Origin: Tetraselmis striata
Taxonomy: Eukaryota > Chlorophyta > Chlorodendrophyceae > Chlorodendrales > Chlorodendraceae
DNA: 64,000 bases
Reading direction: 5' to 3'
Assembly: GCA_006384855.1 (NCBI GenBank)
Contig: VCJN01001527.1
Location: forward strand, 124,001-188,000
Shown in pieces: positions 16,071 to 50,289 of the stretch. Numbering within the stretch: position 1 is the first letter of the stretch; every line of letters starts with the position of its first letter. Both the position numbers and the translations under genes were made by a program. The notes under the pieces were generated by a model, which saw nothing but the letters and a program-made list of their open reading frames with translations, did no database searches and was not told the DNA's origin.

Positions 16071-16631
16071 GCTGCGGGGCGCCATGGAGTCCGCCATCTT
16101 CATGTGTAGCAGGGCATCGCCGGACTCTGACGACCCGTGATTCGACATCTTCCAATGCATGCGACCATTCATTGGACTGCGACACACATACATAGTCTCC
16201 CCGACTGTTTAAATTACATCGTAATTGCCCGTAATCGCGATTATCCCAAGGAATAGACTCGTAATCCCCGTATCTACCCTGTAATCGCCACTTTACTGCT
16301 AGGCTCAATAGTCGCAATGACTTGCCCGGCTCGCCCGCATCCCGTAAGTTTACCTCCTACCCTGTTATGCCATCCCCATAGTACGTTGGACCCACATCGC
16401 GCCTCGCGCGTGTACCCGTAATGGCTCCGGGTTTCGCCACGTTGTACTCAAACGCCTCCCAAGCTCCGTGACGACGCAATGCCCAACGGTACCGTAGGTC
16501 TCAAGCCACGCTCACGCGGCTGAGTTGCAGTTGTGCGGACTTGACCATGCATCGCAACAGACGGAGCACCAGTCGCTAGCCCCTACCAACCCCCGCCGTT
16601 GCAAGCCACCGGCGCCGATTAGTGGTATGCC

Positions 16632-17405
16632 ATGGGGCGTAGCAACTCCAAGCGCCGTATTCCTCCGGGCAAGGAGCGTTAGACCGCTGCCGAGGGGATT
16701 CCGTTACAGATGTCCAAGAGAGACCGCCGCCGCGCGTGTGACGCATGCTTATTCACGAGAACTCTGTTCTACGACAACAGATGGGCGACACAGATGGACG
16801 TGCGCCGAGCCGTATCCGCCCACCGCCGCGCATGTCACAACCGGTGGTGATGGCGCCCATGCGGTAGCTGCTGCACCGTACGGCCGTCGCGCCTCTGCTC
16901 CGTCCGGACCAAGTCAGACCAAAATCCGGGGCGAGCCGGGTGCATCGATACCGTCGCCGCCCGCCGGCATCGCTCCCACTGCCCTCTCCGCTGCTCTCGT
17001 CTCCCCGCAACGAATCAGCGAGCTCCGCACCCAACGGCGGGGAGGGGCGTTCGGTGTCGTCTGATGGTGGCTTGGCATCAAGCATGGCAACGCATGAGAT
17101 GAATGCCGATCTTCACGTGGGCGTTGTCATATCCAATAAGACGGCGTTCGGGAAGCGGGGGAGCTTTCTCGGCCATGTCCCCCCCCACCCGGTGCCCTCC
17201 CTGACATCCCGTTACACCTGCCATATAGGCCCACCGCCGCCATGTGATAGCCACCCGTGTGTATCATCTAGGTCGTCAGTTTATGGACGATAACGAGGGC
17301 GCAGACCCGGCGGATAGGGAGTTGGTAATGAAGGTGATTTACGACGACGGCGACTCGGAAGAGCTAACTGAGTCGGATTTACAACCGCTATACTTGACGA
17401 CATAG
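16632..17405 (+). pseudogene. CACTA transposase N-terminus: C2HC finger and Tudor-like module, broken
   Basis: ATG 16632 opens MGRSNSKRRIPPGKER, then hits TAG at 16680. The homologous copy on the minus strand (32218-31922) stays open here and shows a C-x2-C-x12-H-x5-C finger. Further on, about 17050-17180 gives GEGRSVSSDGG and LHVGVVISNKTAFGKRGSF. An ORF from ATG 17283 to 17405 gives the acidic stretch ending YDDGDSEELTESDLQPLY. The two halves together look like a Tudor/Agenet-type fold (VG..I.K.F....F.G.V followed by V.YDDGDSEELT..EL), split by an intron whose donor is followed by a C run. Function in the element is inferred to be chromatin or DNA binding by the transposase. Confidence 0.55.
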
Positions 17406-17639
17406 CAGCTGAGCGATTTCACTCGTAGGTTGCCTCAAGGCGCGCCATTCACGACCTCCCGCCGGCGGTGCGCTCCTTGCGCACCCATCGCCAATGCTTC
17501 CAGGGGGTGCTTGCCCGCGTTGTTGCCCCATAGTTTAGGCATTGGAGAGAGTACCGCATTAGCAATAACGTGCAAACGATGATTTGCTTTGCTTCCTTAC
17601 ACGCGCACCTGACATGACCTACGCAAACATCTCGACGCC

Positions 17640-20600
17640 GACTATAGCGACGCCGACCGCGACGCCGAAGGCATTGTCACGGGGGTTGTGGAAGGCAACC
17701 CCTCCGACGACAGCCGCAGCGACAGCGATAGCGACGGAGACGATGGCGCGAGGTATGACTTCAATACCGGGACCAACAGCGCTCGAGGGCAGTACGACGA
17801 CGGGAAGAGGTGAGCATGTATCGTGTCGACTCTCCCTCCCTCAGTGTGGCGCCTACTAGTCCGTTGCAAACACCTGCTCCTTCAACCCCTTTGCAACAAA
17901 CGCCGTCAATTGTACACCCGTGCCGAGGCCACACTGACGGAGGCCGCGCTCAATCTCTGCGAGTGGAAGCTGAATATGCATAATAACATCAAGACGGCGG
18001 CGTTCGAGGGGCTGTCCTGCTGAAGAAACACATGCTACCGAAGGACGAGTCAGAGCTTGCAAAGACGTGGTTAGTACAAGGTGGAGCAGTGCATGAACTA
18101 CGTCCCGGACACAAAGAAGTATATATCGTACACTGCTGCCCGTGCGACGAGCATCGGAACGGCCACTTCATGGATGGTGACTAAAGTTACGACGACCGCT
18201 GCTCTAGCTGCAATATGACACGCTGGACACCCGAGTTACTGCGCCACCCGCGCCCCGCCACGCCTGAACCGCGCAAGTTTTACTACGACTTCAACGTTTT
18301 GTGAGGTGATGAACCCCCCCTTCCGTTTGCCCCCACTCGACGGCATTGTCAGCGCATAGCGTAATTGAGTTTTTTTTGCACGAAACACGTTGCATATGGT
18401 GAAGCAATTCGTTTGGGGTGAGAAGTGGACTCGTATGCGCAAAGGCATATGCATAGACCAATCCATCAGTGGGTTTTGAAACTCTGAAGCGTGCAAGGCC
18501 ATGGATGCTGCCACCAACGGGCATCCAGTTTTCTCATTAAGACAACGGGGAAGTATGGTTTATGTGGAAATGGAGTGGAGCTGCACTACAGCATAGCATA
18601 TTCTTGCTGGATATTTGGCGTTAGATTCGTACCCCAATGTTGTTATATGCTGCCAGACATATGAGTATAATTACAGTTCGGTGGATGTGACCTGCTGTGC
18701 GGTGCGACCTAAAACTGCATGTGTCAAGACATGTCATCATTAAATCGGGGGGAGAAGCGCAACAACAAGGTGTTACTCATCATCCTAGGCCCCTTTTGCA
18801 CCAAAGCACGTTGACATATATGTGGAGGAGACACTCAAGGCAATTGCCAGCACGCCGAGCCCGGAGGGCGCACTGACTGTTCAGGATGTATATGAGGTGA
18901 CTGACAACGATGGCAAGAAGTCTAGAGCGAACCGTGACTTGCAGTACGAGGTGTACTATCAAGTGGAGATGTTGGCCTGCGATTCGTTGCTGCTAACATC
19001 TGACATTGATACGCACAATGTGGCATGATGGAATATAGATATACATTGACGCCTTCTTTGCTGACATGCATGGACGCTTAAAGGCTATGAAGCGTGGTGG
19101 AGTTACATCGTGACACGGCTGCTCCTATTGTCCGCTACAGCGCACAGAGGGCAGGGGCAGCAAAAAAGGTATGACTGTGCATGTTTTATGTGTCTGCATG
19201 CAGATAGCGTGTTACTGCTCTGGAGGATGCTGATCATTCATGGGCGGCTTTGGGTGCGGGCAAGTACTACTTCTGAGTCTGCCGTTCAGACGCCACTTAC
19301 TGCGACGGCTATAAGACGGCGTGCACACGGTGGTGATGGACGCGGCGCAGGGAAAGACTGCCGACGATGACTATGAACCCAGCATTGCCTACTGCGGGGA
19401 TGCCCACCTGCAGCTGTCCAGCGCAGATATATGCGATATTTGGCAGTAGAGGTCGGCGCAGGGCGCATCGTGAAAACGATAGCGCCGGTACTACATGCAT
19501 GTCTCCATTTGTGCGTTGGCTGCCGTATATAAGCTATGTTGACTATGTTGGCCGCTGCCGATAGCACATGCACTAATGATGGGGGTAGTCAAGGACTTTT
19601 GAGAGTATGTCGGCACCGTGAAGGTTAGTGATCTTTTTCATCGATGTTGTTATTGCCTGCCCGTGGTGTCCGTTCTAATGACCGTTGCTGAAATAATGTG
19701 TGTGCCCTCACAGGATACGCGGCCCAAGGTGTAGAAGATGGAAAGGCGGATGGCGCTAGTCACCTTGATCAGTGACTTAGGCAGGCCGGTCTGGCCGATG
19801 CTGCCGTCAACCGTCACTAGCGGTGCGGTGTGTGCCAATTTGACATGCGAGGACTTTCTGCACTTTACGGAGAATGTGGCAGTGCTGGTCCTTGGGTGAG
19901 GGCCCCTCGCTGCTAATAATGCTAGGAGTAATACAGCCTAGCTCCGATGTAGGTGTGTGATGTCTACTGAGTACGTGGCTTGCGTGGCAATTCCTGCAGG
20001 GATATGTTTGACAACGCAGAGCATCAATACATGCCCAGTCATGTGGCATGTGCTGCAAGGAACGGTCATCCACTACCTCATGGACTTAAGGAGTGTGACG
20101 CTCCTGCTGACTGTGAGGAGTGCCAACGTGTCAACGAGTACATCAAGAAGCAGCGGGAGGGGGCTCCGACTGCTTGCTGACCTATGCGGAGATGTGCATC
20201 GTGTATTTACATGATGAGATGATGAAACTGAACATGCACAATCTGGTCTGCCGAGTCAGAGATCCAAGAGGCGGCCAGGGGCAGCACTGCCCGCAACTCG
20301 GAGCTATGGATGGAGCGTACACTGCGCCCTTCCGCCTGCCCTCATACGCATTGTATCTGGGCCGTTGTCATATGAATACATGGCCTATCTCATGTGCAGA
20401 TCGATGCGGGACGTGAAATACGTGGCCAGAGGCAGAGGCACCACTTTCACGTAGCGGGCATACGGGCGGCAGTTCTTACTAGAGGCACGCATCATGTTCT
20501 TGCGTACATGTGTGGACCCAAACTTCCCTAGCCTACCTCTATGGCGGCCGTGCTTTGTGGGACAGTGGCAGGCCCCATGGGGCAGACGATGTCGGAGATA

Positions 20601-21635
20601 TGTTTGTGGGCACGGGACCATGCTACACGGGGCGCCGCCGTGAAGCCAAGCACCTCAGCCGCCCCCGCCAACGAGGCGGCATGCGCAGAGGCGCTTGACA
20701 AGTACAAGTACTCTCAAGGAACTGGTACAGTGGAGCTTGAACCGGCATGGAAGCGCGCGTGTGAAGCGGGACTCGACCCACAGGTCATCGAGTGACCCCC
20801 CCCCCCCCCCCCCCCGCCCCGCCCCACGTCCCCTCTTCCCCTCCCTCGCTGGCATGCTCATGTATATGTGGATAATATGCGCCGACAATGGTGGATGCCT
20901 GGCTGCTGCACTATTTTGTACGTTCAACTTGTATCACCAGTGTAAGATAGGGGAGGGGACATCATTCATGGTTACCTATGTATCGTGCCCTATAGGACAC
21001 GAGGACGGAAGCGCAACTTTTGGATATAGCCCCCCCCCCTTCCCCCCCCGCCTCACACACACACGCCCTACTCCAAACTGCCTACAAAGTGTTGCCATAT
21101 GCTGCTGCTGAGTTTTGGTATACACACACATGCAAATTATGTATATGAGAAGGCCGAGACACGGAAGCATGCGGTAGTTGTGCAGAATACATGGGACGAG
21201 CAGTGGGTGCCCACTTATGAGTACGGCAAGCATGCCACACTGCGAGAGGTGCGTGCCGAGGTAATTGAGCAACATGACAACCACGTGTATATATGTTGGG
21301 GAAGTTCAATACTTCCTGGAGATGACCCACAGCAACCTTTGGTGCCGGACCTCATCCTCGCCGTGTGCCGACTGCCCGCAGATGAGCGCATGCATGGTGA
21401 TAGGGTCCCCCTCGACACTGGTGTGTGGCAGAGAAAGGCGCACCTTCGGCCAAACACTCGCAAGGGTCAGCATGCCTTCCATGTAGCGCTTAAGCGCATC
21501 GAGGAGAAACCGTGTTGCTTGTATGGTGATCCGGACATAGTGACAGACATGCACTTATCCCGGTTTGGCATGTCCTCACATGATGTGGGGCAGTATGTGT
21601 GGTGCACATATAACACAATGACCCTGCACTACTAA
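17640..21635 (+). pseudogene. TNP2-like (CACTA/Plavaka) transposase, eroded exons
   Basis: Pieces in order: an acidic Ser/Asp stretch (17635-17812); a TNP2 zinc-binding segment with LPKDESELAKTW, then VHCCPCDEH and, after an in-frame stop, CSSCNMTRW (about 18019-18240), matching the CACTA pattern 'LP-DNE-PK ... HCCPNDC ... CP-C--SRW'; an 18790-19025 segment around ETLKAIAS-PEGALTVQDVYEV; a Cys-rich piece at 19990-20180 (LKECDAPADCEEC); 20541-20795; and a C-terminal block (21099-21635) with WDEQWVPTYEYGKHATLREVRAE. The C-terminal block is about 80% similar to 39610-40145. Frames change at about 21290, where copy 2 reads HVGEVQYF-EVTH straight through. TGTAA occurs downstream in both copies (21811 and 40328 areas). 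Confidence 0.6.
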
Positions 21636-22020
21636 TTGAATTCCAGTATGTTAGCTAGTAAATGTAATCGATCAAAGCAGTTATGTTGCCCGGCAATTAA
21701 GGCCCAGCGCCCCGGCGCCGCTGTCCTGCGCACCCAACGCCCGAAATCTAGCCCCTTTGCGGTTTTGATCAGCGGCGGTTGTGAGGTCTCCTCCATCTAA
21801 ATCGACGGCGGTGTAAAACCGCCTCTGCGGGCAATCTGTTGGGTGGGACTGCCAAGGGAGGTGACACAATTGGGACAATCATGCGGGAGCCTATAAGCCT
21901 TATAGGGATAAGGCTTGTCATACTGTCACACCGTGCTAACACTTCAGAACTTCTGCGTGCTGCTGCTCGCTACTTTACTTGCTATGGACAACTAGTCGTT
22001 GCAAAACGCGGGGTAGTGGC

Positions 22021-23277
22021 GGGGGGGGGGGGGGGGGGGGGGGCAAGGCACCATGAGGCGTCACAAGATCGCCTCGTTTGTATTTAGGCACATATGGTCG
22101 CCGGTGCCGGATTGTGTGCTACTCAACCTGCCAACTTCTTTTGAATGTTGTGTGCTCTTGGAGGGGCAGCCAAGCCTTGGACCACGTGCGGCTGCTCACA
22201 GTCCTTCGAGGGAGCCATTCCTTTAGGGTGCCAAACACTGCCGGGCATTTGTTAGCAGCCTTTTCCCGAATGTTCGCCCACATGTCCTCAGGTAGATCGT
22301 CCCACGGGCAGTGCAACACCTTGTCGGATATGGGCGCGGGGGCTGACGTTCCCCCCACCGGCTCGTCGGGTACGGGTCCGTTTCGCCACGGCATGTGGCT
22401 TCATGTCCGGGACTGCATCCATCGCGCGCAGTTGGGCAGTAATTGTGTTGTGACCTACCCCACCGTCGGCAGCCCCGACGTAGTCCACATCGCTTCCCGC
22501 GGTAACCCGTACGATATTGCAAAAACTGCCCGAATATGTTATACTGGTATGCGTTCGCACCGTTGGTACACTGTGCACCTGCGGCATCGCGACGCGTACG
22601 TCGCGCGGCCCATTGCCCACGCTATAGCCCTAGCCAGCCCACGACTCTCAGCCCCCGACACCGCAATCACCCGTAGTGCCAGCGATGCCCCATCATGCGG
22701 CGATAGTGGGCGGGTCGCGAACGCCATAGCCGCGCATGCGGCGTGTTGCGGGATCCCCGTGACGACCCCGCAGTAGCCGATATGCGCGCCGCCCCAATCC
22801 ACCAGCTTCGACCCGATGCCGCTGGCTTTGTCGGACGAGCTAGGGCACAACGTGCACAGTCTAGGCTCTCTATTTTGACTATGCTACCTTTTTGTCCGAG
22901 CGGTTTCGGCCTTAGTGGCGTACGGTGTCAGCAAATAAAACGCGAATCCGTGATGGGGGGTGGTCAATCGAGCGGCAGTCGCGAGGGTGGACCTCGCGGC
23001 CGCTATCCCGGGAAACTCGCGCTCTCTCAGCCCGCCATGACCGCTCTATGTATTCGAAGGGGGCAGGGGATATGCCTACGGGGTGGGCAGGAGTTGGTGG
23101 GGTTGCCAAGGGTGTTCTAGCGGGTGCGTGATGCGCCGCCCGCGGTGCCCAACAGGTACCGCGGGCGGCGACGCAAACGACCCCGCGGCGTAGGGGCGCG
23201 TGCGGTGCGTGCGGGCCGATTCTTCGTACATTATTCGGATCGCGAACTATCGTACGGGTTCCCGCGGGAAGTGATGT
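22021..23277. other. G23 tract and unassigned spacer inside CACTA copy 1
   Basis: A run of 23 G (22021-22043) follows the end of the transposase block, as an 18-G run does in copy 2 (40573-40590). The next 1.2 kb has GC-rich open frames mainly on the minus strand (for example 22850-22539 and 22394-22119, the latter with LPEDMWANIREKAANKCPAVFGTLKEW) but no domain that I recognise. It shows no visible similarity to the spacer at the same place in copy 2. Confidence 0.45.
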
Positions 23278-25690
23278 GTCAGTCGCTTGTCTCACTGTTT
23301 GGGCTTGTGTAGACGCGCACCGTCAAATTACAAGCTCATTACGGGACCCTTCTCCGTTAAGGGGTAGCTACGACATACTTCCGACCATGGAGCAAGTTTG
23401 TGTCATGTGGCGACACATGTGTCCTCATTCATAGGCTAAATACGGGCGCCATACGGGATATGGCTCAGTACTTAACAAATATACGGGGCTATTACGAGAT
23501 GGATACGCAGCAAGCCGGGTTTACTCCTATTGCAACGACCTGCGCTATATTAAAGCGGAGCGCGAGTGGTCCATGCGCAGTGCCGGACTTAGTTTTTGAA
23601 AGCAGCTGCGTCTATACCGGACGCGCACTCGCACACCCGCCAAACGGTACGGTACCTGCTCGTCCTCGGCATCCTCGACCATGGCCAAGCAGGCCAGCTA
23701 CTTCAATGCGCGACCCCTGGGCAAAGCTTCGAGGCCTGACCATACCACTCGGTCGTCTGTGCAGCATGGACCGCATCCATGCGGGCGTGCGGCAGGCACG
23801 GTTCCCGGGCCGGGCGATCGACAACGATATCCGGATTTACGTAGCGCAACCCCAGGGCCGCGACGCTTTCGGTTGTGCTGTCACGGACATACTCGACAAC
23901 TGCATTGAGCGGAAGCAGTACGACGATGATGGGAAGGAGAACGTGCGTGCTGCATGTTTTCAAGTGTCCGATGATGCCGTCTCGATGTATTTTACCTCGT
24001 CCGTACCCGACGCGTTGCGTGTCTAGATCTTGAACCCAACACCCGAGGCAGCGCCACCCCCCTCCCCCCCCCTCCCCCGTCCCCCCCCCCCCCCCCCCCC
24101 CCCGCCGCGGCCCCGCGGGATCTTCCATGGGCACTAGCGTTAAAAACGCCTCCGTCGACGGTCCATGCCATATTCCCACAAACCGGGGGCTTGAGTCCGT
24201 CCTGAAAGGTAGTACAGTGACTCGGTGCGTGGGTGGCTGACATGAGTACATGACTGCGTAGAGAATTTGAATTTCAAAGACGTTGACCGCCTTTGCCCTG
24301 CGTTTTTATTGTTGCTCTTGCAGATGAGGAAAAGTCGTTGCTGTCGGCCGTCTTTGACGAATGCTGGCCGCATGACACTCAGACGGGGATCCTTTACCTT
24401 ATTATGAAGAAGACGCCGAGGTATCCCATCGCCGCGCCCCGGTACACCGAGCGGATATGCTACGCTACCTTCAACTTCCGTGCCGGCTACGCGGCCAAAA
24501 CTCATTTCATTGTTACGTCAAGGAGACCGTCATTGCCGCGTTCCGAGAGTTCACCCCTCCCCTTTCCTCCCAACCCCACTGCGACCATCCTTGTAGGTTG
24601 TGCTGGCGGCTGTGCACCTTGTGCTATCCATGACGCACGCGAATGTGAGGAGCTACCTCGCTCCGCACTACTTCCCGGATGAGGGCAAAGCCACCCAAGC
24701 TAGGAAGTAGGGACCATTGCCGAGCGGCGACCGACTCGCGAAGGCCCTCCACCTGGCAGCGGCATGGCAAGAGAGAGAGCTCGGGAGGTACAGCTACAAA
24801 GCCGGCGAGTGCCCCTTTCTAACGTGGTGTTCAAGGGCGAGGAGGAGGTCTGCGAGGTGACGCCGCACTGGGATGAAGCCGCAGGGGAGTCGCGTCTGTT
24901 TTCGCACTTGTTCGATTATTACACAGCCACCGCCGAGACAAGCAGTCGACACGCATACTAACTTTCGCGATTGCTGTGGCACTGTGGCAGACCCCCTCCC
25001 AGTCCCTGCGTTTGGCGGCAAGCCGATGGTATCCAGTGTTTAGCGCTCGTCGGCTACGCCATGTCCGGCCGCGGTGAACCGGATCGTGGCGCTGCCGCTA
25101 TAGCGGGCACCGCTGCATCGCCAAAGCTCAACGGCATGGTGGGCGTGCTGAGGCAGCATCAGAAGAAGCCGGGCGGCATCATCAAGCACAACACCAACGC
25201 GGTCAAAAACTTGGCTGCCACGCAAGCCTTCACCGGCGACAATTACCTAACGTCGACGAGGGCGGCAATAGCGAGGATCCCCCGGCCAAGACGGCCAAGC
25301 AGCCCGCCAAGCCAGCGGATGGAGTGCCGGCCCATCCAGGGCCGGGGTGATGCCGGGGCCAGGGCCAGGGGCGGTGCTGGGGCCAGGGCGGCCGGTGGGC
25401 CGTTAGGGACGCGGGGCAGCCGCTAGGCCGCCATGCGCATGGCACTATCTAGCAATAGCCGCTGCCGCCACCCGCGAGCAGGCCCGCCGCGGCACGACCA
25501 GTGGCGGCCGCCGCCGAAACCGGATTTAAATATTTTATTCAGCGTGCGCACTGCGCTGCTCGCCGCCCACTACCGCGCATTATCGCGTTATTGCGCAGCG
25601 ATATACATCATCATGACGCGAGATTGTCGGGCTTATAGAGCCAACAGCAAAATAGTCCACCGCGGATTAGCGTCGCAATGACGTAGGTGT
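23278..25690 (+). pseudogene. Second CACTA-element gene (unassigned spliced protein), copy 1
   Basis: No known family is recognised. Copy 1 and the copies at 47112-49071 and 49172-50200 share conserved exons and splice sites. One exon contains DAFG-AVTDIL--C-ERKQYD (about 23820-24025). An acceptor follows a C23 tract (24081-24103). An exon ends at NRGLESVLKG (about 24120-24205). The next starts after TTGCTCTTGCAG with DEEKSLLSAVFDECW-DTQTGI (24324 on). A further exon has GPLPSGDRLAKALHLA and EEEVCEVTPH (24700-24960), and the last a Pro/Ala/Gly-rich tail (24975-25427). Frame changes and stops (for example after 'ATQARK') suggest decay. Its steady position after the transposase suggests an element-encoded accessory protein, comparable in place to TnpA/TNP1; that role is inference. 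Confidence 0.5.
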
Positions 25691-25717
25691 GATATGCGCC
25701 TTATGGAGTTTATCATT

Positions 25718-25749
25718 ACTCGTATGTCATGGAACGACTACATACGAGT
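25718..25749. repeat. Conserved subterminal hairpin of the CACTA family
   Basis: ACTCGTATGT (25718-25727) and ACATACGAGT (25740-25749) are perfect 10-bp inverted arms around a 12-nt loop. The same motif, slightly eroded, lies at about 50179-50210 in copy 2, at the same distance from the right end of the element. Confidence 0.6.
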
Positions 25750-25822
25750 GTCATTAGAGTATTCAGATTACATGGTATTACATATTTACATGCCAATCAC
25801 AAGGTGGCCCAGTAGACTAGTG

Positions 25823-27526: not shown

Positions 27527-27531
27527 TTACA
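27527..27531 (-). promoter_or_regulatory. TGTAA polyadenylation signal of the 2H-like gene
   Basis: TGTAA on the minus strand, about 120 bp beyond the stop codon at 27651 and on the same strand as that gene. Confidence 0.4.
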
Positions 27532-27650
27532 CGGGGTGGAGTCGGGTGAAGGCAGAGTACCACGGGCGGCAGGCAGGGGGGCGGGGAGCCGGGGAGGGTC
27601 AATAAGGCACTAATGGAGCGGGATCTCCCTCTGGCAGCTGTGAAGGAGGG

Positions 27651-28226: not shown

Positions 28227-28589
28227 TGTCGAGCCTGTATGCTGGATGGGCGCAGCCGCCACTTATCCTTAAATGTAGAGCGCGGAATCTAATACCGGCT
28301 CTTGCGTGCGCGCGAGGGCAGGGGCTGCGAGTGATGGTGAATTGCTGGAAGAAAGAAGTGAAAACAAGCTCCGCTGAGGCTCTGCAGCTACCTGTAGTCG
28401 CTACCGGTGCAGGTCACGGTTTGATGCTCACGAGTACCGCGTAGCGACTACTGGTGTGAATTACGAGATATAAATACATCAAGGCCAGCAAATCCACAGC
28501 TAAAATCAGTAGTAAAAGATCAACCGAGCAAGCCGCCTAAAAGCGGCCCGCATCCCGCACGAGGCGGTACGGGTAGTCGATGGATGAGT

Positions 28590-30091: not shown

Positions 30092-30096
30092 TGAGT

Positions 30097-31619: not shown

Positions 31620-32660
31620 CTTCTTTCGTGTCCTTTGCCGCCCTCGCACGCTTCCTACGCGGGGGGGGGGAGGGGGGGGGGGGGCTACTTGGCCGAGAAA
31701 GCTCCCCCGGGTCCCGAACGTCTTGGCTATGACCGTGCCCACGTGAAGCTCGGCATTCATCTCCTGCGATGCCATGCTTGCTGCCAGGCCACCATCAGAC
31801 GACACCGAACGCCCCTCCCCGCCGCTGGGTAGTGCGCGCGTGGCTCGCTGATTCATTTCGGGGAGACGGGAGCGGCGGAGAGAGAGGCGCGGGGGATGGC
31901 GGCGGCGACCGCATCGATGCATCACCCGGCTCGCCCCGCGTTTCGGTCAGACCGGGTCCGGACGGAGCAGAGGCGTGACGGACGTGCGTGCGGTGTAGCA
32001 GGGGCGCCATCACCACCGGCTGCGACAGGCGCGGCGGTGTCCGAAGGCTCGGCGCACGCCTCCCTCCATCTGTGCTTGTCGAAGAAATAACTCCTCGAGA
32101 TAGAAGCGCCACACGCGTCGCAGCGCAGTCTCTTGATCGCCGCTTTCCAAGTCCCCGTGGCAGGCGTCCAGCCCTCCTTGCTCTCAGGAATATGGCGCTT
32201 TGAGTTGGGACGCCCCATGGCACACCACTATTCGGCGCCGGCGGCTCGCAGGGGCGGGGTGGTGGGTAGGCGATAGTCACTGGCAAGGGTCGTCCGCTGG
32301 ACTTGCAGCAATTCAGCCGGCGGTTTGAGGCCGTTGGCCGTTGCGGCGTCGTCACGGAGCCTGTGCTGTTGAGGCATTACAGTACAGTGTGGCGGAAGTG
32401 CCACACGTTACGGCGGGTTGCCGCGCGAGCCGCGATGTGGGCCCAATGTATTGTGAGGATGGCACATGCTACTGGTAGCCTAGATACTGGTAGGAATTAC
32501 GGAATATAATGCAGGCCGGCGGGCACTTCATTGCGACTACCGAGCCTAGCAGAAAAGTGGCGATTACACGGTATATACGGCGATTACAAGCCCATTCCGT
32601 GGGAAAATCACGATTACGGGCCATTACAGTGTAATTACGGGGCAGTCTGGGAGGCTAGTG
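31620..32660 (-). mobile_element. 5' fragment of a CACTA element (inverted relative to copy 1)
   Basis: On the minus strand the fragment starts at 32660 with CACTAGCCTCCCAGACTGC and GTAATTACACTGTAAT, then follows copy 1 (16191-17180) in order: GTAATC-rich subterminal DNA, the MGR-NSKR start of the transposase, the C2HC finger and the first half of the Tudor-like module. It breaks off near 31620 inside an interrupted G/C tract (31661-31684), where copy 1 has its C run after the presumed donor. Confidence 0.75.
31922..32218 (-). pseudogene. CACTA transposase N-terminal fragment with C2HC finger
   Basis: ATG 32218 opens MGRPNSKRHIPESKEGW; the finger is C33-x2-C36-x12-H49-x5-C55 in a stretch with Arg, Trp and Phe. 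This is the better-preserved version of the piece that is broken by TAG at 16680 in copy 1. The frame stops at 31922, before the Tudor-like half (about 31860-31690, in another frame, GEGRSVSSDGG and GTVIAKTFGTRGSF). Confidence 0.55.
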
Positions 32661-39240: not shown

Positions 39241-39609
39241 AAAGCATGTCCTAAAAGCAACTCGGCTTGGGCAGCGGAGAGCAGCAAGTCAGCATGTTGT
39301 AAAATCAATTTCAATTTCATTTTTTAGCAAAGGAAATGCGGTTTGTGAAATCGACGGACAAGAGTCGATTCCACTCTTATTTGGTCGAAAATGATTTATT
39401 ATGATTGTTGATTATGATTAATGAGGTTGTTGCACTCCTCCACAGGTACAACCTATATCATCACCAGTGCAAGATAGGGCGGGAGGGGACATCATTCCTG
39501 GCTACCACTGCATCGTACACCAGGACACAAGGACGGAAGCGCAACTTCTGGATAAAGGCACCCCCCCCCCCCCCCCCCCCCCGCCTGACTCCAAGCTGCC
39601 TAGTACATA

Positions 39610-40145
39610 GTGTTGCCTTACTTGTTGCTGAGTTCTGGTATACACACACACATGCATGTTGTGCATGAAAAGCCCGAGACAAGGGGACATGTGGTGTTCA
39701 AGCACAAGACATGGGACGAGCAGTGGGTGCCCACTGATGAGTACGGCAAGCATGCAATACTGCCAGAAACGCGTGCCGAAGTGGAGCAACATGACAACCA
39801 CATGTATGTTGGGGAAGTACAGTATTTCATGGAGGTGACCCACACCAGCCCTTTGGTGCCGGGCCTCACCCTCGCTGTGTGCCGACGGCACGCAGCTCAG
39901 CGCACGGTGATAGGGTCCCCCCTCGGCACTGATGAGCGGCAAAGCAAGGCGCCCCTTCGGCCAAACATTCGCAGAGGCATCACTCCTTCCATGTCGCACT
40001 GAAGCACGTCGAGGAGAAACTGTAGTGTTGCTTCTATGCTGATCCGGACATAGTGACACATGCACTTCTCCCCGGTTCGGCATGTCCTCACGGGGTGTGG
40101 GGCGGTATGTGTGGGGCACATATAACACAATGACCGTGCACTACT
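39610..40145 (+). pseudogene. CACTA transposase C-terminal part, copy 2
   Basis: Homologous to 21099-21635. Reads WDEQWVPTDEYGKHAILPE, then AEVEQHDNHMYVGEVQYF and LVPGLTLAVCRR in one frame, where copy 1 has a frame change. Stops appear near 40002 and afterwards. The similarity continues to about 40497 in the 3' flank. Confidence 0.55.
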
Positions 40146-40652
40146 AGCTGAATTTCTGTATAGCTGGTAAATATAATTGATCAAAGTTATGCTACCCAGC
40201 AATTCCGGCGCAGCGCCCCGGTGCCGCTGCCATGCGCACCCAGCGCCCACCGCCCAAAACCCATCCCCTAGCGGTTTTGATCAGCGGCGGTTGCTTTTGA
40301 GGTCTCCATCATCAGAATCGAATGCGGTGTAAAACCGCCCCTCCTAGCAGTCTGCTGGGTACGTGGGACTTCCAAGGGAGGTGACACAATTGGGACATTC
40401 TTAGGGGCAAGGCTTGTCATATTGTTATACAATGCTAAAGCTACAATACTTATGTGTGCTGCTAATCGCTACTTTACTGGCTATATATGGACAACTATGC
40501 CTTTTATGTATTTTTCAGCGCTTTGGCTTGTGCCCCAACTATGCCTCATCTGTCCGCAGTCTACTCTCCCAAGGGGGGGGGGGGGGGGGGTGGAGCATCT
40601 CATGAGCTGGTCTCAATGCAAAACCTCGTGAGTCGACCAATATAATACGAAG

Positions 40653-41360
40653 TCATGGCCGCCAGTATCTATTTGCCCATCGCATGATGGGAGTCATTAC
40701 GGAAGCCGCTAGCCCGATGGCATGGTCCACGCCCCACGGAATGTTGGGGTACGGCAGGAAGGCTGTCCTGAGTGATCTAGCTGCACTTGCTGGGTGCGGG
40801 TAATCGAGGACGATGCCACCCGCCATGTCGGCTTCCCAATCCTTGGCAGCCTCCAGCATCAGTCTGCGCACATTGGTCGGCGTGTCACGGGGATGAATCA
40901 AGTGAATGTAGCGGGACAGCAAGGCCGTAGCCGCGAGCACCATTGCCGGGTGTACAGTCAGCTTGAACTGATCGACGAAGACTTTTCGCAGCTTTGGGTT
41001 GCCTAGTGGGTCCTTCTCGATGCACACCTTTAGGGCGCGGTACAGCTGAGCCCGCGCCGCAGCGAGCCATATCCCGCCGACTCCCCTAAACATGTCTCTA
41101 TCAGAAACCCGGGTATCCTCCGGCGCGTCTATGAGGAAAAACTTCCAGACCCGGAGACCCTCTGCCCGAACGGTGAGGATGCCCGGCCATGTCTGTTCCT
41201 TGTCGAGAGAGGCATACATGTTGGTGTCGGTCATGCGGGTTGGAACCCACCCCGGCTCGAGATGGATGCACCCCCTCACGATCAAATGCCGGGTGAGGTA
41301 ACTGCTCAACTCTGTAGGGACGCAGTAGTACGCTGCGTGCGGCGGGTAGCGGTTGGCCAT
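40653..41360 (-). CDS. Unassigned protein, 235 aa, in the CACTA spacer
   Basis: ATG at 41360; the frame is open from 41474. Composition is protein-like with hydrophobic helices (AMVLAATALLSRYIHLIH), Trp-containing segments (EGLRVWKFFLIDAPED, MFRGVGGIWLAAARAQLY) and conserved-looking turns. No domain is recognised. It lies on the opposite strand to the transposase and the second gene. The gypsy LTR lies 50 bp beyond the open frame, so the 5' end of a longer gene could have been separated by that insertion. Nothing similar is seen in the spacer of copy 1. Confidence 0.4.
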   Translation of the reverse strand: MANRYPPHAAYYCVPTELSSYLTRHLIVRGCIHLEPGWVPTRMTDTNMYASLDKEQTWPGILTVRAEGLRVWKFFLIDAPEDTRVSDRDMFRGVGGIWLAAARAQLYRALKVCIEKDPLGNPKLRKVFVDQFKLTVHPAMVLAATALLSRYIHLIHPRDTPTNVRRLMLEAAKDWEADMAGGIVLDYPHPASAARSLRTAFLPYPNIPWGVDHAIGLAASVMTPIMRWANRYWRP

Positions 41361-41524
41361 TGTTGGCGAGGCGAGGAACCGTAGATATGGTGGGTAACGC
41401 TGGGTGCCGGCGGCGGGTGGGTGTTGGTTGTGTGCTGCCAGGGTTTGGGATCGGTAGCTGGGAGAAGCCGACAACTTTGCTGCACCGTGTCCCTTGCGGC
41501 ACTACAAGCCGTGGGCAGCGCTGA

Positions 41525-41902
41525 TGTAAGCTTTAAGCAAGAGGCTTTAGCGGAGACAAGGGAAAAGGTTTGCAACAAAGGTAATTGTTACATTGTACCG
41601 GGGCGTGCACGGCTTTATACAACTATTGGCATGGCAGCCGGTTGCAAGCAGGTGCTAGGCTTGGAGATGCGATCTAGTCTTGAAGTCATCGGGGATTGCT
41701 GCAGGCAGCCTCGAGCATTGGTAGAAGCATGCGAGCGTAATGTGGCCGTACGTCGGTAAGACGTGTAATGGTAATGGTTGCGTGCGGGCAATGAGCATAT
41801 GAGTAGTACATGTATGAGTATATGTAGATATATGAGCATGCATGTGTTTACGAGTGTGATGGGTATGAGTATGCAGGTAGGGTTATAGTGGTAACCCTAA
41901 CA
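41525..41902 (-). repeat. 3' LTR of the gypsy element
   Basis: 378-bp LTR, 3' by coding orientation. The purine-rich tract lies immediately upstream of it on the minus strand (plus 41903-41920). Confidence 0.88.
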
Positions 41903-42309
41903 TTCCATCCCGGCCCCAAAAAGTATAGTTACCTGATACGCAAAGAAAAACGGGCGGGGTATTTTGCGGACATGGCACGATAATGGGTTGCAGTAAACAT
42001 TTGTCGAAGGGGAGCGGTTTACAGACATAATCGTGCAGCATATCAACAAGTATTTTAGTATATGGCTTGAATTTACGTTTCGTAGAATTTGGGATGGGAG
42101 GCCATAGCAGGTGGTAGGCGGAGTTTGGCATGCATGAATGGAGTATGGGCGATGGGGTATGGGCTGATGTAACGAAATTATCGAACCGGCTGATTTCGTA
42201 GCAATATGTATTCCGAAACAAAAAGCGTGGGCATCTGTATTTCTGTGCGATATCAATAATGCGATCCGCGGGGTCGACAGGTTGGCATAACAAGCTAGCT
42301 GACGTGAGC

Positions 42310-45300
42310 ATGTTCGTTCTTCATGCCGCCGGAGCGGCGGGCATCAAATGGAGTGCATTTAATGGCGGAATGGTTGGCATTGTTATATGTTAAATCGGCG
42401 AGGGATAAGCGGGGCCATTTGTCATTACATAACGAGCATTACGAGCGAAACATACTTTTTGCCAAAACCGAGGTGAAGCGGGGACCGCGATCTTCTACCT
42501 TTATGCCACAAACAGGGCGTGGCGGCGGAAAAAGATTGTCAATGAATAAGCGGGCAAGCTGAGGAGCGTCTACGTGGATACTTCACGGGATGAAGCGGGC
42601 TTGTTTCGTGAATGTGCGTACAAGTGTGGCTATAGTGGCAGTCACTTACGCAGAGGGCGGCATGCTAGTGATACACAAAGTTTATGGGAATAATTGCCTA
42701 GGAGCGGGTGCTTGTATGGACGGGAGACACGGAGCCTATGTGCTGCTGTGTGGAATTATATGTGTAGGTGGTCAAGGTGGGCAAGTATATTGCGAATAAT
42801 GGGTCACCATAAGTTTTCCGAATGGTGGCGAGAGTGCGTGCGCCATCAAGATGGCCGGCAGAGTGCGTCGAGTAATTCCGGAATGATCAGTTTAAGACGG
42901 GCTTTTATTTTAGGTGGGCAGGCATACGTTATTAGACATCTAGCATAATGAACCGTCGTTGGAATTATTGTATAACGCAATTGGGGATACGGTTACCTTA
43001 GTAGTTTGCTTTGGTAGTATAGCTGTGGCGAATCCGAGCAATTAATTCTATATTCACTTGAAGATGGTGGTAATGCATGGTATGAGAGAATATGGCTGAG
43101 CGTCATGTTTTGTTCAGTCGTGGCGTGAATCCGGGCGACGAGAACGGGGCATAGCCCTCACTCTAAGAGCTTATATTGCGGTAACTATAATATGCCGAGC
43201 ACGTGCTTCCGGTGCGGGGTTGGTTTGCTAGGTATGGTAAAACAATACGGAGCCATAGTGAGTGACGGCGGCTTAACGTTATTGGTTGGACGGGCAGGTG
43301 GCGTAGAGTGGCATGGGCGTGATCTTAAAACTATTTGCTATATAGCATCATCAGTTGGTCACATCGTAACCACGAGGCAAAGTTCTTGGGCGTAGGTGGG
43401 GTATCTGGTATGTGTAGATTGTGAAGCGTTCGGTCTAATAAGCGCACCGTCGGAGGTGTCCTTTTGCATTTTGCTGAAGTATCACGGCGCCTAAGGCGTA
43501 GTCAGAGCATATAATTATGGTGTAACCGCGTAAAAGGCAACGTACACATATATGTTCGCGATGTCTCCTTTAAACTCTGTATAATGGGACAAAATATATT
43601 ATAAAAGGGGTGCGGTCATGCGAGAGTATTTATGAAAACATATATTTGAAAGATAAATTTCTGACTTTGAGGGGAATCGTTGTATCTGCTGTGCAAAATC
43701 ACGCGGGGCTCAATTCGCGAAGTGCAGCAATGTTTTTATCGGAATGACGCGTGCCGCGTTGGCTATCTAGTGGCCCAAATATTCGAGTTCGTTCTTGGCA
43801 TAGGAGATTACGCAGTCGCGACAGTATGTGGTGTTGGCGAGTAAAACAAGCGTGGTATACGTTGTATTATGTGTTCATCGAGGAAGATACTAGATACCAA
43901 AACGTCATCAAAGTACACAAGAATAGACATGTTTTATGCGACTGCAAAACGTTACTCATCCATTGTTGAAACGCCGACGGGGCATTGAACATAATGCCAA
44001 ATGGCATGACTAGGAATTCGTACTAACCGAACTGAGTTTTAAACACTGCTTTTTCCGGCGTCCGTATTTTGTTCCAAGGTGGTGTTAGATGAAAATTAGG
44101 TCGAGGGCGGAATACGCGGCAGCGCCGGCGAGCATATCTAAGAATATGGCGGCGCGTGGTATCGGGATCGAAACCTATTCGGCGGGTATATCTATGCAAG
44201 TGACGATAATCAATAATGCACATGCGCATGCCCGCCATATTGTCATGTTGGGCAAATATGACATGTGCAGCAAAAGGCGGAAATAATTACCCAATAAATC
44301 CTTGTCTGAAACGGTGGTTTGATGCTTTTGTAATCCTCTAATTCAGCAGGTGGGTTGGTGGAAGGCAAAATATTTTGCCGGGTGGTACATGGACATCTTA
44401 GAGTAGTGGTATTTCAAAGTGAACGCCGGGTTTTAGATGTGGAACGGAATTCAATAGTTGGCATATATATGTATGTTTAAGTAGAAGGGTTCGAAATTGT
44501 GAGGTAGGTTCAACACATTGGTCGGTAGTGAAAGCGGTAATATCAGTATCAATGGATTGGGCACAATAAGTATTTTCTGTTGCGTCGTATTCGTGGACTA
44601 CGGCGTACAAGAAAACGGTGTAGGGATCTTTTAAGTAGTTTTCGAGCCTAGTGCTAGCTTGAATGGCGTCGACATTACCGGAGCGGGGTTCGATAGGGCA
44701 TGTGACGGCTTGGCCGTCGGGGGACGCGATGGAGCCGGCGGTCGAATTTTATTAATATTCGGATTCTTATTATAGGAAAGGTAAGCCGAGAACGGCGTCG
44801 GAATTAGTTTGGAAGCTGGTTATGATAAATTCAACATTTCTCGTTTGATATTCATTTATAATTATCTAATTTTAACCGCGGGACTGCGACGCTAGTGGCA
44901 CGCGGCCGTCTGCCATGATTACTCATAAATCTTTTGAGCGGCGCGGTTTTAATGGTTTTAATTTTGCGCAGGCGGACGAAGGTGTCACTTATAAATACAG
45001 CAGCATTGCGCCGGAATATATATAGTACTCGTAGCATAGTGGGCGGGAGTAGTTTTTATAATCGGTCAATTTGGTTTTTTTACCGACAGTAAATTGTTAT
45101 CGGACATAGAGGTTACGAAAGCTTTTTCGGTTTTAAAGAGGGACTGGTGGGGTTTTAGCTGCCCTATTTCGCACACGGGTCTTACCTTTAGACTCAAGCA
45201 AGCTCAAGAGCGTTCACGTGCTTTGCGCGCGTACCCGTATTGTCGTTGTGTGTAGTGGCTGGCCGCCTGCTTGTCGACAGTATTGTCGGCGAGGTAAACA

Positions 45301-46116
45301 TCCACGATCCAATTGGCCGGTGGCCATTGGCAAGTTGTCAATGGCAGTTGTGGCAGCGTGGAACAAATATGTTCCGGCTGGGTAGCGGTGGATGGGGCGG
45401 TATTTGGACTAGGTGGGGCGTCAGGACTTTCCGAGGTTAAAATGCCAGCGGGGTAAAACAATAATGGCACGGTATGATCTGGAGTGTACATGTAATCCCA
45501 AGTACATAATAATAGTGCTACGAACAATAAAATATAGTCGCTACTTTTACCCAACAACACCATGCATGCCTACGAATCCGTTACATGGCACATATATGCG
45601 TAATGTGCGAAGTAAATTAACACAGTATGACCGATAGCCGATGTAGTAGACATAGTATCGCGTGTACAAAACTCGGCTAGACCGTAATAAATGTAGCAGA
45701 AAAGCAGTAAGGATAGGCGAACTGTAGCTGTGGTCGCTACTTAGGTTAGTCATTAGTCATTGACTCGCTATTTAGCTAATTGCCGAGGCATGCACGGTAA
45801 GTCGATGATGATTGAAGCAGTGGAGGCGGGCGGGCAGGCAGTTGGCCGGGCAGGCTCGGATTTTTGCCGGTAGTGCCAAGGCGGCGTCGGTGTTATTTTT
45901 GGATAGCGGCACGTTTCGCGATCGCAGATAACGTGTGGCAACATCTGTGTCAGCTGGGATGGCAAAGCAGGCAGATGCTAGCAGGAACCGACGTTGCTCG
46001 CGCGAAGGCAACGAGTGCGCCGACTCGACAGGCAACGGGCATGGCGAGGAGGCCCCGTCATGCGCAGATACCGGCACGAGAGGCCCGGCCGCGCTCTCAG
46101 GAGTTAGCTCGCTCAT
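42310..46116 (-). pseudogene. Gypsy gag-pol remnant
   Basis: From 5' to 3' on the minus strand: an intact 114-aa frame from ATG 46116 (gag-like, MSELTPESAAG); a Pro-rich frame at 45563-45204; a protease region near 45010-44740 reading YSGAM and, after a frame change, FISDTFVRLRK, then DAVLGLPFL (the catalytic D of D-S/T-G-A is replaced by Tyr); RT near 44010-43700 with FGIMFNAPSAFQQWM, then VYFDDVLVSS in another frame and ELEYLGH; RNase H near 43520-43440 with CSDYALGAVILQQ; and integrase C-terminal part near 42420-42330 with YNNANHSAIKCTPF. The order and motifs are those of Ty3/gypsy. Every junction is disrupted. Confidence 0.8.
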
Positions 46117-46703
46117 TGGGGCATGTCAATAGGCATATTCTCGGGGATGGGGGATAAACTCGACCGGTAAGAAAGATGGTCGATTGATTTTCAATTCGAA
46201 ATCAAATCTAAGATTGCCCCAAACCGTCGTTAACCGGCAAGGCGGTGCGAGTTCAGCTGGGTAGTGCTGCCCTTAGCTGCCTTCTGACAGCCATTGTCTG
46301 GTGCCACGGTGGTGGCTTGCTCGTCCACGAGCATTTCCTGATGGAGTGACCCGTTCGGCAACATCCATCGCATATGCCGTCATATCGGTCAGTTGCCGAG
46401 GGTTGGTGGTAGTGGGATGCGTGGTAGCAGGTGGTGGGGGGGGGGGGGGGGGGGGGGAAGTAACGTCCGTTGGCGATGCATGGGAGATGTCCGTGGTTAG
46501 GGCGCGGGTCGTGGATTTGGCTAGCTCGGCCCGGATTAGACGAGCCACCGGGCGGTGTCGATCTGTACTTCGATGGTTAGCGGCGGCGGCGGCGGCGGCG
46601 GCAGTGAGCGGTAGGCTAGTCGACCACGATGGCAGCGGCGGAGGGGGGGGGGGGGGGGATTACCGGTCATACGCGGTGGAAGCGCGGCGAGGATCTTTCA
46701 CCA

Positions 46704-46720
46704 GAGCTCGAACGAAACCA
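46704..46720 (-). promoter_or_regulatory. Primer-binding-site candidate of the gypsy element
   Basis: TGGTTTCGTTCGAGCTC on the minus strand would pair with a tRNA 3' end GAGCTCGAACGAAACCA, which ends in CCA and contains TTCGA-type T-arm complementarity. The tRNA identity was not determined. Confidence 0.6.
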
Positions 46721-46721
46721 A

Positions 46722-47101
46722 TGTAAGCTTTAAGCAAGAGACTTTAGCGGAGACAAGGAAAAGGTTTGCAACAAAGGTAATTGTTACAGTGTACCGGGGC
46801 GTACACGGCTTTATACAACTATTGGCATGGCAGCCGGCTGCAAGCAAGGGCTAGGCTTGGAGATGCGATCTAGTCTTGAAGTCATTGGGGATTGTTGCAG
46901 ACAGCCTCGGGCATTGGTAGAAGCATGCAAGCGTAGTGTGGCCATACGTCGGTAAGACGTGTAACAATAGTAATGGCGGCGTGCGGGCAATGAGCATATG
47001 AGTAGTACAGGTATGAGTATATGTAGATATATGAGCATGCATGTGTTTACGAGTATGATGGGTATGAGTATGCAAGAAGGGTTATAGTGCTAACCCTAAC
47101 A
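46722..47101 (-). repeat. 5' LTR of the gypsy element
   Basis: 380-bp LTR, 5' by coding orientation, directly followed inward by one spacer base and the primer-binding-site candidate. Confidence 0.88.
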
Positions 47102-49171: not shown

Positions 49172-50222
49172 GTGCACCTTGTGATATACAGAGAGCATGG
49201 GAACGTGAGAAACTACCTTAGCTCGGCACTACTTCCAATATGTGGGCAAGGACGTCCAAGGTAGGAAGAAGGGACCATTGCCGAGCGAGGACCGACTCGC
49301 GAAGGCCCTCGATCTTGCAGAGGCCTTGCAGCAAAGCGAGCTCGGGAGGTACTACCAAGCCGGCAAGTACCCCCTTTCTAATGAGATGTTCAAGGGCGAG
49401 GAGGAGGTCTGCGAGGTGACGCCGCACTCGGAAGCAACACGAGAGTCGGGCTTGTTTTCGCACTTATTCGATTACAAAGCCACCGCCGTGACAAGCAACC
49501 AACACGCATACTGACTTTATTCGCAGTTATTGTGTTAGTGTGCCCATTCCCTACGTTTGGCGGTAAGCCGATCGTATCGAGTGTTCAACGCAACAAGGTT
49601 GTGGCGCTGCCGTTGGCTGGCACGGCTGCGTCGCCAAAGCTCCACGGCGGCTTGGGGGGTGTGCTGAAGCATTAGCAAAAGAGGGCGGGTGGCGTCATCA
49701 AGCATCACCAACGCGGTCAAGAACCTGGCCGCCATGGAAGCCTTCCCCGACGACAACGTCGACAATGGCAGTAGCCCCGAGCCCCTGGCCAAGCAGCCCG
49801 CCAAGCCGGCGGTTGGAGTGCCGGCCCGGGGCCGGGGCGGTGCTGAAGCCAAGGCGGGCGGTGGGGCGTTCGGGTCGCGGGCCGGCCGCCGGGCCGCAGT
49901 GGCATCAGTAGTTGCTGCCGCCACCCACGAGCAGCAGACCCGCCGCCGTGGCGGTCCCGGCGGCCGAAACCGGACGCAAATAATGTATTCCGCCCGCCCA
50001 TTGCCGCGCGCCTCGCCGCCCACTGCCGCGCGCCCGCTCACTGGCACTACTGCCGCGCGTGCTATCGCGGATTAGGCAAGCGCACGAGATTGTCGGGCTT
50101 CCATAGCGAGATGCAAAAATAGACCACCGCGGATATAGCGTCTCGATGATGTGTGACACGCGCTTGATGCTGTTTACTACGAGTATGTCACGGAATGACT
50201 ACATACGAGTGTCATCATTATA
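49172..50222 (+). pseudogene. Second CACTA-element gene, partial duplicate
   Basis: Starts abruptly at GTGCACCTTGTG, inside the exon that begins near 48399 in copy 2, and is close to identical to 48402-49070 through KKGPLPSEDRLAKALDLAEA and FKGEEEVCEVTPHSEA. It then continues into the Gly/Ala-rich tail and the 3' sequence down to the conserved subterminal hairpin (about 50179-50210). It contains a TAG in the C-terminal part (near 49674). Confidence 0.5.
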
Positions 50223-50289
50223 TTGGTAAGATTACGGGGTAAATACAGGGTAGTACAGGGTAATTACGAGGTTGTCCGGGAGCCTAGTG

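What the first reader, a model, noticed from the sequence alone, without database searches (positions are those of the whole stretch)
16191..25822. CACTA family carrying a second, unassigned spliced gene
Behind the TNP2-like transposase there is a second gene on the same strand (23278-25690) that also follows the transposase block in copy 2 (47112-49071, with a partial third copy at 49172). Exon edges, the splice acceptors (TTGCTCTTGCAG, C-tract plus GCAG) and motifs such as KGPLPS-DRLAKAL and GEEEVCEVTPH are kept among copies. I recognise no family. Seen: shared order and exons. Known: CACTA elements such as En/Spm and Tam1 often encode TnpA/TNP1-type subterminal-binding proteins. Inferred: this is such an accessory protein of new type.
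Basis: partly seen in the sequence, partly recalled or inferred. Interest (0 to 1): 0.75.

Follow-up and report, generated by a model that had tools for sequence, protein, structure and literature searches.

The report
Transposon family with unrecognised helper gene
A family of jumping DNA elements in an unnamed eukaryotic genome carries, beside its right-hand end, a second spliced gene that resembles nothing in the databases searched and probably helps the element move, while the slot in front of it can hold one of two interchangeable back-to-front genes.

Summary
A spliced second gene, here G2 (23681 to about 25529), lies between a transposase-like gene (G1) and a CTAGTG terminus (25822), and again in copy 2 (from 47515; terminus 50289). 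The 'third copy' at 49172 is a partial tandem duplication inside copy 2. G2 is coding: predicted frames hold 32 stops in 8024 codons against 460 in 16054 in the other frames, and exon 1 is conserved at 28% identity in a diverged family.
Genome-wide, order and strand are fixed as far as the capped lists show. Of 150 G2 places, 44 have G1 upstream on the same strand and none has it downstream on that strand.
The ends, a 2-bp target duplication (4 of 7 pairs) and subterminal GTAAT arrays fit CACTA elements. Pfam does not confirm the transposase domain.
New here: the slot between G1 and G2 holds one of two unrelated antisense genes (47 and 32 of 150 places, never both), exchanged at least twice on the G2 tree.
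Best reading: G2 is a TnpA/TNP1-like accessory protein without detectable relatives. DNA binding was not tested.

The parts
16191..16390 (+). left end of element copy 1 (CATAGTCTCCCCGACTG, decayed CACTAG end) with a subterminal array of GTAAT/ATTAC motifs
   Evidence: 5 GTAAT/ATTAC motifs in 200 bp; the CACTAG left-end pattern (up to 3 mismatches) occurs 380 times in the genome, control 0
16650..16775 (+). decayed first exon of the transposase-like gene G1, with a zinc-finger-like CxxC...H motif in better copies (motif read by eye)
   Evidence: tblastn 48% to the c5 copy, E 5e-5; better copy on the minus strand at 32200-32066, 58%, E 5e-16
19265..20260 (+). G1 core fragments (PIAHALMMGVVKDF in this copy), frame broken by stops and frameshifts
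   Evidence: tblastn to the c5 copy, E 7e-26 and 2e-27
20901..21640 (+). G1 C-terminal exon; frame ends in a stop after TMTLHY at 21635
   Evidence: ORF 21030-21635; genome family, 150 of 664 candidates scored; diverged family 43% identity over 88 aa
22122..22400 (-). antisense cassette gene 'FB' (93-aa open piece), unrecognised
   Evidence: tblastn family; stops 0.4 per 100 codons in this frame across 5 copies, 1.7-3.6 in the other five frames
22486..23277 (.). 792-bp non-autonomous insertion with inverted ends CACATC...GATGTG and a 2-bp TC duplication, splitting the G1-G2 spacer
   Evidence: sequence and inverted match; homology runs across the site in c984 and c2389
23681..25529 (+). second gene G2 of copy 1 (decayed): exon 1 from ATG 23681; exon 2 about 24119-24207; exon 3 24324-24884; exon 4 24991 to about 25529 (3' end uncertain)
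   Evidence: alignment of 18 copies, splice sites, stop depletion
25623..25822 (+). right subterminal region and terminus ...GTAGACTAGTG
39460..40497 (+). G1 C-terminal block of copy 2
   Evidence: 78% DNA identity to copy 1
40656..41501 (-). antisense cassette gene 'G3' of copy 2: open 282-aa frame, unrecognised
   Evidence: ORF; genome family, 153 matches, 138 of 670 candidates scored; no Pfam or NCBIfam match
41525..47101 (.). insertion inside copy 2 (edges by eye), flanked by 342-bp direct repeats 93% alike (41561-41902, 46757-47101)
47515..49050 (+). G2 of copy 2: exon 1 47515-about 47863; exon 2 47931-48020; exon 3 48122-about 48669 (frameshifted); exon 4 from 48765
   Evidence: ORFs
50085..50289 (+). 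right subterminal region and CTAGTG terminus of copy 2
31723..32660 (-). left end of another, inverted copy (CACTAGCCTCCCAGACTG...), 72% to 16212-17136

Best explanation
G2 is an element-encoded accessory protein of a CACTA-type DNA transposon. SHOWN: the elements have CACTAG...CTAGTG ends, a 2-bp target duplication in most of the better-preserved pairs, and reiterated GTAAT motifs in the outer 200 bp. They carry a transposase-like gene (G1) and, downstream on the same strand and next to the right end, the spliced gene G2. INFERRED: G2 works like TnpA of En/Spm or TNP1 of Tam1. It would bind the GTAAT arrays at both ends, bring the ends together for the transposase, and perhaps also regulate the element's promoter. 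The antisense genes FB and G3 that alternate in the slot between G1 and G2 would be optional extra functions.
For: Coding: predicted exon frames have 32 stops in 8024 codons, other frames 460 in 16054 (the best frame was chosen per exon). Exons together diverge less than upstream, introns 1-2 and 3' UTR together, 0.173 against 0.225, p 5e-17. A diverged family B encodes the same exon 1 at 28% identity, E 1e-8 (genome tblastn between families down to 2e-10), with the same G1-then-G2 order in the one copy seen. Linkage: 44 of 150 G2 places have G1 upstream on the same strand within 6 kb, 0 have it downstream on that strand. 21 of the 100 listed right ends have G2 within 4 kb upstream, and 1 has it in another arrangement. 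15 of the 100 listed left ends have G2 downstream, mirror control 0. Two of two copies picked by the transposase block also carry G2. Ends: GTAAT/ATTAC at 17.7 per kb in 11 ends against 1.5 per kb in the core. In one comparison each between families A and B, G1 keeps 43% identity over 88 aa and G2 28% over 117 aa, in line with fast-evolving TnpA-type proteins (PMC2613891 and PMC1636069, passages read).
Against: No DNA-binding domain is recognised: no Pfam, NCBIfam or PDB match above chance. The AlphaFold models are uninformative (pLDDT 35 and 39). Copies are decayed, and dN/dS in the predicted frames is 0.64-1.00, the lowest of the three frames only in exon 3. Exon 1 (divergence 0.201) and exon 2 (0.225) are not less diverged than intron 2 (0.175); the exon effect comes from exons 3 and 4. 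Shared indels are multiples of three in only 1 of 6 in exon 1 and 1 of 3 in exon 2. 67 of 150 G2 places show no partner gene in the capped lists. The ends of family B were not identified. The transposase itself has no Pfam match (and PF02992 over the genome).
Confidence: 0.55

Rival explanations
1. G2 is an element-encoded regulator that counters host silencing (the way VANC of VANDAL elements is said to work, recalled, or as TnpA activates its promoter), not part of the excision machinery.
For: Same linkage data. TnpA itself reactivates a methylated promoter (PMC1636069, passage read). The alternating antisense genes beside it suggest a slot for host-interaction functions.
Against: Nothing here separates the two roles; GTAAT arrays lie at both ends, not only at the promoter end.
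Confidence: 0.2
2. G1 and G2 are one transcription unit, and G2 is an alternatively spliced product or the C-terminal exons of the transposase, as TnpA and TnpD are in En/Spm.
For: Same strand, constant order, G1 found only 5' of G2 on that strand. Spm and SmTRC1 make several proteins by alternative splicing (PMC1636069, passages read).
Against: G2 exon 1 starts with an ATG in 13 of the 16 copies readable there. The G1 C-terminal frame runs to a stop after TMTLHY in window copy 1 and c1025. An antisense gene lies just upstream of G2 in 79 of the 150 places.
Confidence: 0.2
3. G2 is a host gene captured once and carried as a passenger without a role in transposition.
For: CACTA elements are known to take up genes (recalled); FB and G3 look like such cargo.
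Against: Kept in two families with only 28% identity, next to the right end, exons 3 and 4 less diverged than UTR and upstream parts.
Confidence: 0.1
4. G2 is not a gene; only a conserved stretch of repeat DNA.
For: Copies are decayed and dN/dS is close to 1 in several predicted frames; shared indels in exons 1-2 mostly break the frame.
Against: Stop depletion in the spliced frames and protein-level similarity between families.
Confidence: 0.03

Closest known systems
CACTA / En-Spm elements of plants (En/Spm, Tam1, Tgmt*)
   Same: CACTAG...CTAGTG ends, short inverted repeats of about 17 bp (by eye), subterminal repeat arrays, a transposase-like gene followed on the same strand by a spliced second gene next to the right end
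   Different: 2-bp target duplication here (plants: 3 bp, PMC4158355 and PMC8978399, passages read); no Pfam Transposase_21 match; second gene without detectable similarity; an antisense gene cassette between the two genes
TRC / animal and fungal CACTA-like elements (SmTRC1)
   Same: 2-bp target duplication (7 of 14 copies in PMC1636069, passage read); accessory proteins without similarity to plant TnpA
   Different: ends begin CCC there and CACTAG here; the Transposase_21 motif [LVI]-D-x-[LM]-H-x3-L-G of that paper is only partly present here (PIAHALMMG in the window copy, IAHALPLG in L010, PIAHALLLR in L036 and L020)
TnpA (En/Spm) and TNP1 (Tam1) subterminal-binding proteins
   Same: position 3' of the transposase, rapid divergence, subterminal arrays as likely target
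   Different: no sequence similarity found (Pfam scans); DNA binding untested

Membership tests
CACTA (En/Spm) superfamily | CACTA-type terminal inverted repeats | tested here: met
   CACTAGYCTCCCRGACTG... left ends (380, control 0) and ...CGGTAGACTAGTG right ends (146, control 2), up to 3 mismatches
CACTA (En/Spm) superfamily | 2-3 bp target site duplication | tested here: met
   2-bp match in 4 of 5 pairs with both ends found (C684 AC, C613 AT, C2354 AT, C178 TC; not C2330). Window copy 1 and c1025, with decayed left ends, do not match: 4 of 7 in all. Ten pairs were sought; for the other 5 no homologous right end lay in the stretch fetched
CACTA (En/Spm) superfamily | subterminal repeat arrays at both ends | tested here: met
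   GTAAT/ATTAC 12-fold enriched in 11 terminal 200-bp stretches, 1 to 7 per end
CACTA (En/Spm) superfamily | Transposase_21 (TNP2, PF02992) domain | tested here: inconclusive
   no match for decayed, exon-split pieces (E up to 1, up to 10) nor genome-wide, where the control genomes did not ring either; partial motif only
TNP1 (PF03017) or Ptta/En/Spm (PF03004) accessory proteins (accessions recalled) | Pfam domain match in G2 | tested here: not met
   no such family for pieces of exons 1, 3 and 4; spliced protein not scanned whole
TnpA/TNP1-type subterminal-binding function | binds the element's subterminal repeats | not testable with these tools
   needs protein and DNA
F-box proteins (considered for the FB cassette) | F-box domain | tested here: not met
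   resemblance by eye only (LPEDVW...VSRAWSKAW); no Pfam match for three copies at E up to 1 and one at E up to 10

The most novel reading that the evidence does not exclude
A CACTA-type lineage in which the accessory protein is a new family, and in which a fixed slot between transposase and accessory gene is a swap site. Two unrelated antisense genes (FB, 177 aa; G3, about 282 aa) replace each other repeatedly by exchange between elements, giving the transposon interchangeable functions toward the host.
Probability: 0.3. Interest if true: 0.65.

Novelty: new variant of a known kind. Interest (0 to 1): 0.45.

Why it matters
Why CACTA accessory proteins share no sequence between families is an old question. 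Here one genome holds two families whose G1 and G2 genes are still comparable (43% and 28% identity), with the same gene order, so once family B's ends are found the co-change of protein and subterminal motif can be tested directly. The alternating antisense genes, exchanged at least two or three times on the G2 tree, would be a case of modular gene exchange in a cut-and-paste transposon.

Tried and rejected
Read as a 16.4-kb long-TIR element 16191-32660 (repeats I1, I2, I4): rejected, because copies end at 25822 and 31723-32660 is the left end of another, inverted copy. Read 23278 as a module boundary: rejected, it is the edge of the 792-bp insertion. Read the retained intron 3 as a conserved alternative C-terminus: its conservation (0.138, like exon 3 at 0.152) is seen only within family A. 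In family B the apparent read-through in L037 lies in another frame than in L039 (a 4-base difference), so it was dropped (by eye). dN/dS gave little. Structure prediction gave nothing usable, so no fold search was made. Viral contigs: 50 pattern matches, no relative. PDB: best E 0.74 for exon 1, none up to E 1 for the exon 3 end and exon 4. Weak Pfam and NCBIfam lines (E 0.01-1.5, all below the curated cut-offs where shown, some for frames that are not exons) were taken as chance. No Rfam match in the window at gathering scores. Family B ends: looked for CACTA/TAGTG near its G2 copies, none identified. Searches for a printed account of CACTA elements with such genes in algae or unicellular hosts listed nothing whose title or abstract start describes it; the library lacks most subscription papers, and the host species here is unnamed.

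Rows dropped: in the cassette tree 9 of 20 copies had no label and were not counted. The label of c2354 rests coordinates, because the fetched stretch starts after its cassette. When I copied places into, I left out 45 of the 150 rows (FB) and 7 of the 150 listed rows (G3), second pieces at a place already taken or short rows; each had 3 further matches that are not listed. Only 100 of 146 right ends and 100 of 380 left ends are listed. The G1 tree does not reject a single clade for the labels (p-AU 0.10).
Full report
SETTING. The window is C1236:124001-188000 of an unnamed eukaryotic genome of 224 Mb in 2903 contigs ('eukaryotic' is my reading of size and introns).

THE OBSERVATION. A DNA search with 23278-25690 gave 56 matches; 40 of 864 candidates were scored. 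I fetched ten copies with about 18-20 kb each and six shorter ones. In the ten long copies and both window copies, G2 is followed by at least part of the right-end segment in 12 of 12, reaching its last bases in 8. The terminus is sharp: 6 of 8 copies lined up hold CTAGTG and then differ. Upstream, the G1 C-terminal block lies in place in 7 of 12; c221 has an earlier G1 part directly upstream, c443 a piece of G3, c1219 has G3, and c974 and c452 show nothing. Copies c984 and c2389 run straight across that point. Copy 2 is cut by an insertion flanked by 342-bp direct repeats, and its G2 3' half is tandemly duplicated, which explains the 'third copy'.

IS G2 A GENE. Aligning 18 copies gives a start codon (23681; 47515; ATG in 13 of the 16 copies readable there), exon 2, exon 3 and exon 4 with recurring splice signals. 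The 3' end is uncertain: the stop at 25527 is present in 4 of 10 copies readable. In the predicted frames 32 of 8024 codons are stops, against 460 of 16054 in the other two frames (the best frame was chosen per exon). Exons together diverge less (0.173) than upstream, introns 1-2 and 3' UTR together (0.225), p 5e-17; by part, exon 1 is 0.201, exon 2 0.225, exon 3 0.152, exon 4 0.165, intron 1 0.218, intron 2 0.175, intron 3 0.138, so exons 1 and 2 alone do not stand out. Indels shared by two or more copies are multiples of three in 3 of 3 cases in exon 4 and 4 of 8 in exon 3, but only 1 of 6 in exon 1 and 1 of 3 in exon 2. dN/dS in the predicted frames is 0.64-1.00 and the lowest of the three frames only in exon 3. 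The strongest evidence is a diverged family B. An open frame in the C5 contig (L036:7634-8095:-) matches G2 exon 1 at 28% identity, E 1e-8. A genome tblastn with it finds family B on about 20 contigs and family A at about 28-44% identity, E down to 2e-10. Family B also keeps the CEVTP motif, a phase-1 intron and an exon 4 (L037, L039, read by eye). The first intron remains uncertain.

ORDER GENOME-WIDE. Protein searches gave 153 matches for the G1 C-terminus (150 of 664 candidates scored), 150 for G2 exon 1 (150 of 549), 153 for G3 (138 of 670) and 150 for FB (150 of 242). Copied into a script (150 G1, 150 G2, 143 G3, 105 FB), 44 of 150 G2 places have G1 upstream on the same strand within 6 kb. 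None has it downstream on the same strand or upstream on the other strand, and 1 has it downstream on the other strand. 47 have G3 and 32 have FB on the opposite strand within 3 kb upstream; none has both; 83 of 150 have at least one partner, 67 none in these lists. The G1-to-G2 distance is 1.18-1.44 kb in 16 of 21 places with FB and 1.65-1.91 kb in 14 of 19 with G3. Seen from G1, 44 of 150 have G2, 44 have G3, 43 have FB, none both. In family B the C5 copy has the G1 C-terminus (43% identity over 88 aa, E 9e-21) about 0.6 kb before G2, with no antisense gene seen.

ENDS. Right-end pattern: 146 matches with up to 3 mismatches, reversed control 2. Left-end pattern: 380, control 0. Of the 100 right ends listed, 21 have G2 within 4 kb upstream on the same strand, 1 in another arrangement. 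Of the 100 left ends listed, 15 have G2 downstream within 20 kb, mirror control 0; G1 7 (control 0), G3 8 (control 1), FB 7 (control 0). Ends without G2 may be deletion derivatives or copies below the caps (inference). Ten left ends and their expected right-end stretches were sought (for C2354 the right end lay in L032). Five gave a right end; four of these show a 2-bp duplication and one does not. Window copy 1 and c1025, with decayed left ends, show none: 4 of 7 in all. The outer 200 bp of 11 ends hold 39 GTAAT/ATTAC motifs (17.7 per kb against 1.5 in the core; 1 to 7 per end), although left and right ends share little beyond about 17 bp by eye.

THE TRANSPOSASE. G1 has a zinc-finger-like start, a core reading PIAHALMMGVVKDF in window copy 1 and PIAHALLLRIVKEFW in c5, and a C-terminal exon. 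No piece matches Pfam, and PF02992 did not ring in the genome, where the control genomes did not ring either. The core resembles only in part the motif given for CACTA-like transposases in PMC1636069. So 'TNP2-like' is plausible but not shown.

THE SWAPPED CASSETTE. FB and G3 are not alike (best E 1.3). On a tree of 20 G2 sequences the 11 labelled copies need 3 changes of cassette, forced by well-supported branches; none of 200 bootstrap trees needs only one; holding the FB copies together is rejected, p-AU 1.6e-49; 144 and 151 of 500 label shuffles need as few changes, so the labels are not clearly clustered on the tree. With the 9 copies that also have G1, the G2 tree needs 2 changes (p-AU 1.7e-59); the G1 tree needs 4 but does not reject one clade (p 0.10). 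Either cassettes are exchanged or elements recombine next to them; three changes may be one gain and two losses. Chimeric copies in a decayed repeat family are a caution.

MECHANISM. G2 sits where TnpA/TNP1 exons sit in plant CACTA elements, differs more between families than the transposase does, and belongs to elements whose two ends carry reiterated motifs. The likeliest role is binding those motifs to help the transposase pair and cut the ends. This step is inference. No domain was recognised in pieces of exons 1, 3 and 4. Papers: PMC1636069, PMC2613891, PMC4158355 and PMC8978399 were read as passages found by search terms; others only as search listings.

VERDICT. New are its lack of relatives in the libraries searched and the alternating antisense genes.

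Noticed in passing
window 22122-22400 (-) and 40656-41501 (-): Two unrelated antisense genes (FB, G3) occupy the same slot between G1 and G2 in different copies, never both (0 of 150 places, capped lists), and change places on the G2 tree.
   Followed up: yes
window 22486-23277: 792-bp non-autonomous insertion with 30-bp inverted ends CACATCGCTTCCCGCGG... and TC duplication; a 27-bp piece of its end also occurs in the C2303 copy.
   Followed up: partly
window 41525-47101: Insertion inside copy 2 flanked by 342-bp direct repeats 93% alike, perhaps an LTR-type element; a 120-bp piece of it lies reversed at 49052-49174.
   Followed up: no
window 49172-49990; C2495:75781-76523; C379:19870-20259; C1958:138053-138437: Partial tandem duplications of the 3' half of G2 in several copies with different junctions; C379 has two right ends, 17783-17804 and 19748-19769.
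   Followed up: partly
window 24885-24990: Intron 3 of G2 is as conserved as exon 3 (divergence 0.138 against 0.152) and more than introns 1-2 (p 0.003); reason unknown.
   Followed up: partly
window 31723-32660 (-): Inverted left end of another copy with an intact CACTAGCCTCCC end; none of the nine element parts searched matched between 25823 and 31722.
   Followed up: partly
L036 (C5:6000-15800), first 2.2 kb of its reverse strand: A family A element lies directly beside a family B G1-G2 pair with open frames; family A's outermost left end is missing there.
   Followed up: partly
L037:5560-6200: RNase-H-like reading frame pieces (by eye) downstream of a family B G2 copy, probably a retroelement.
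   Followed up: no
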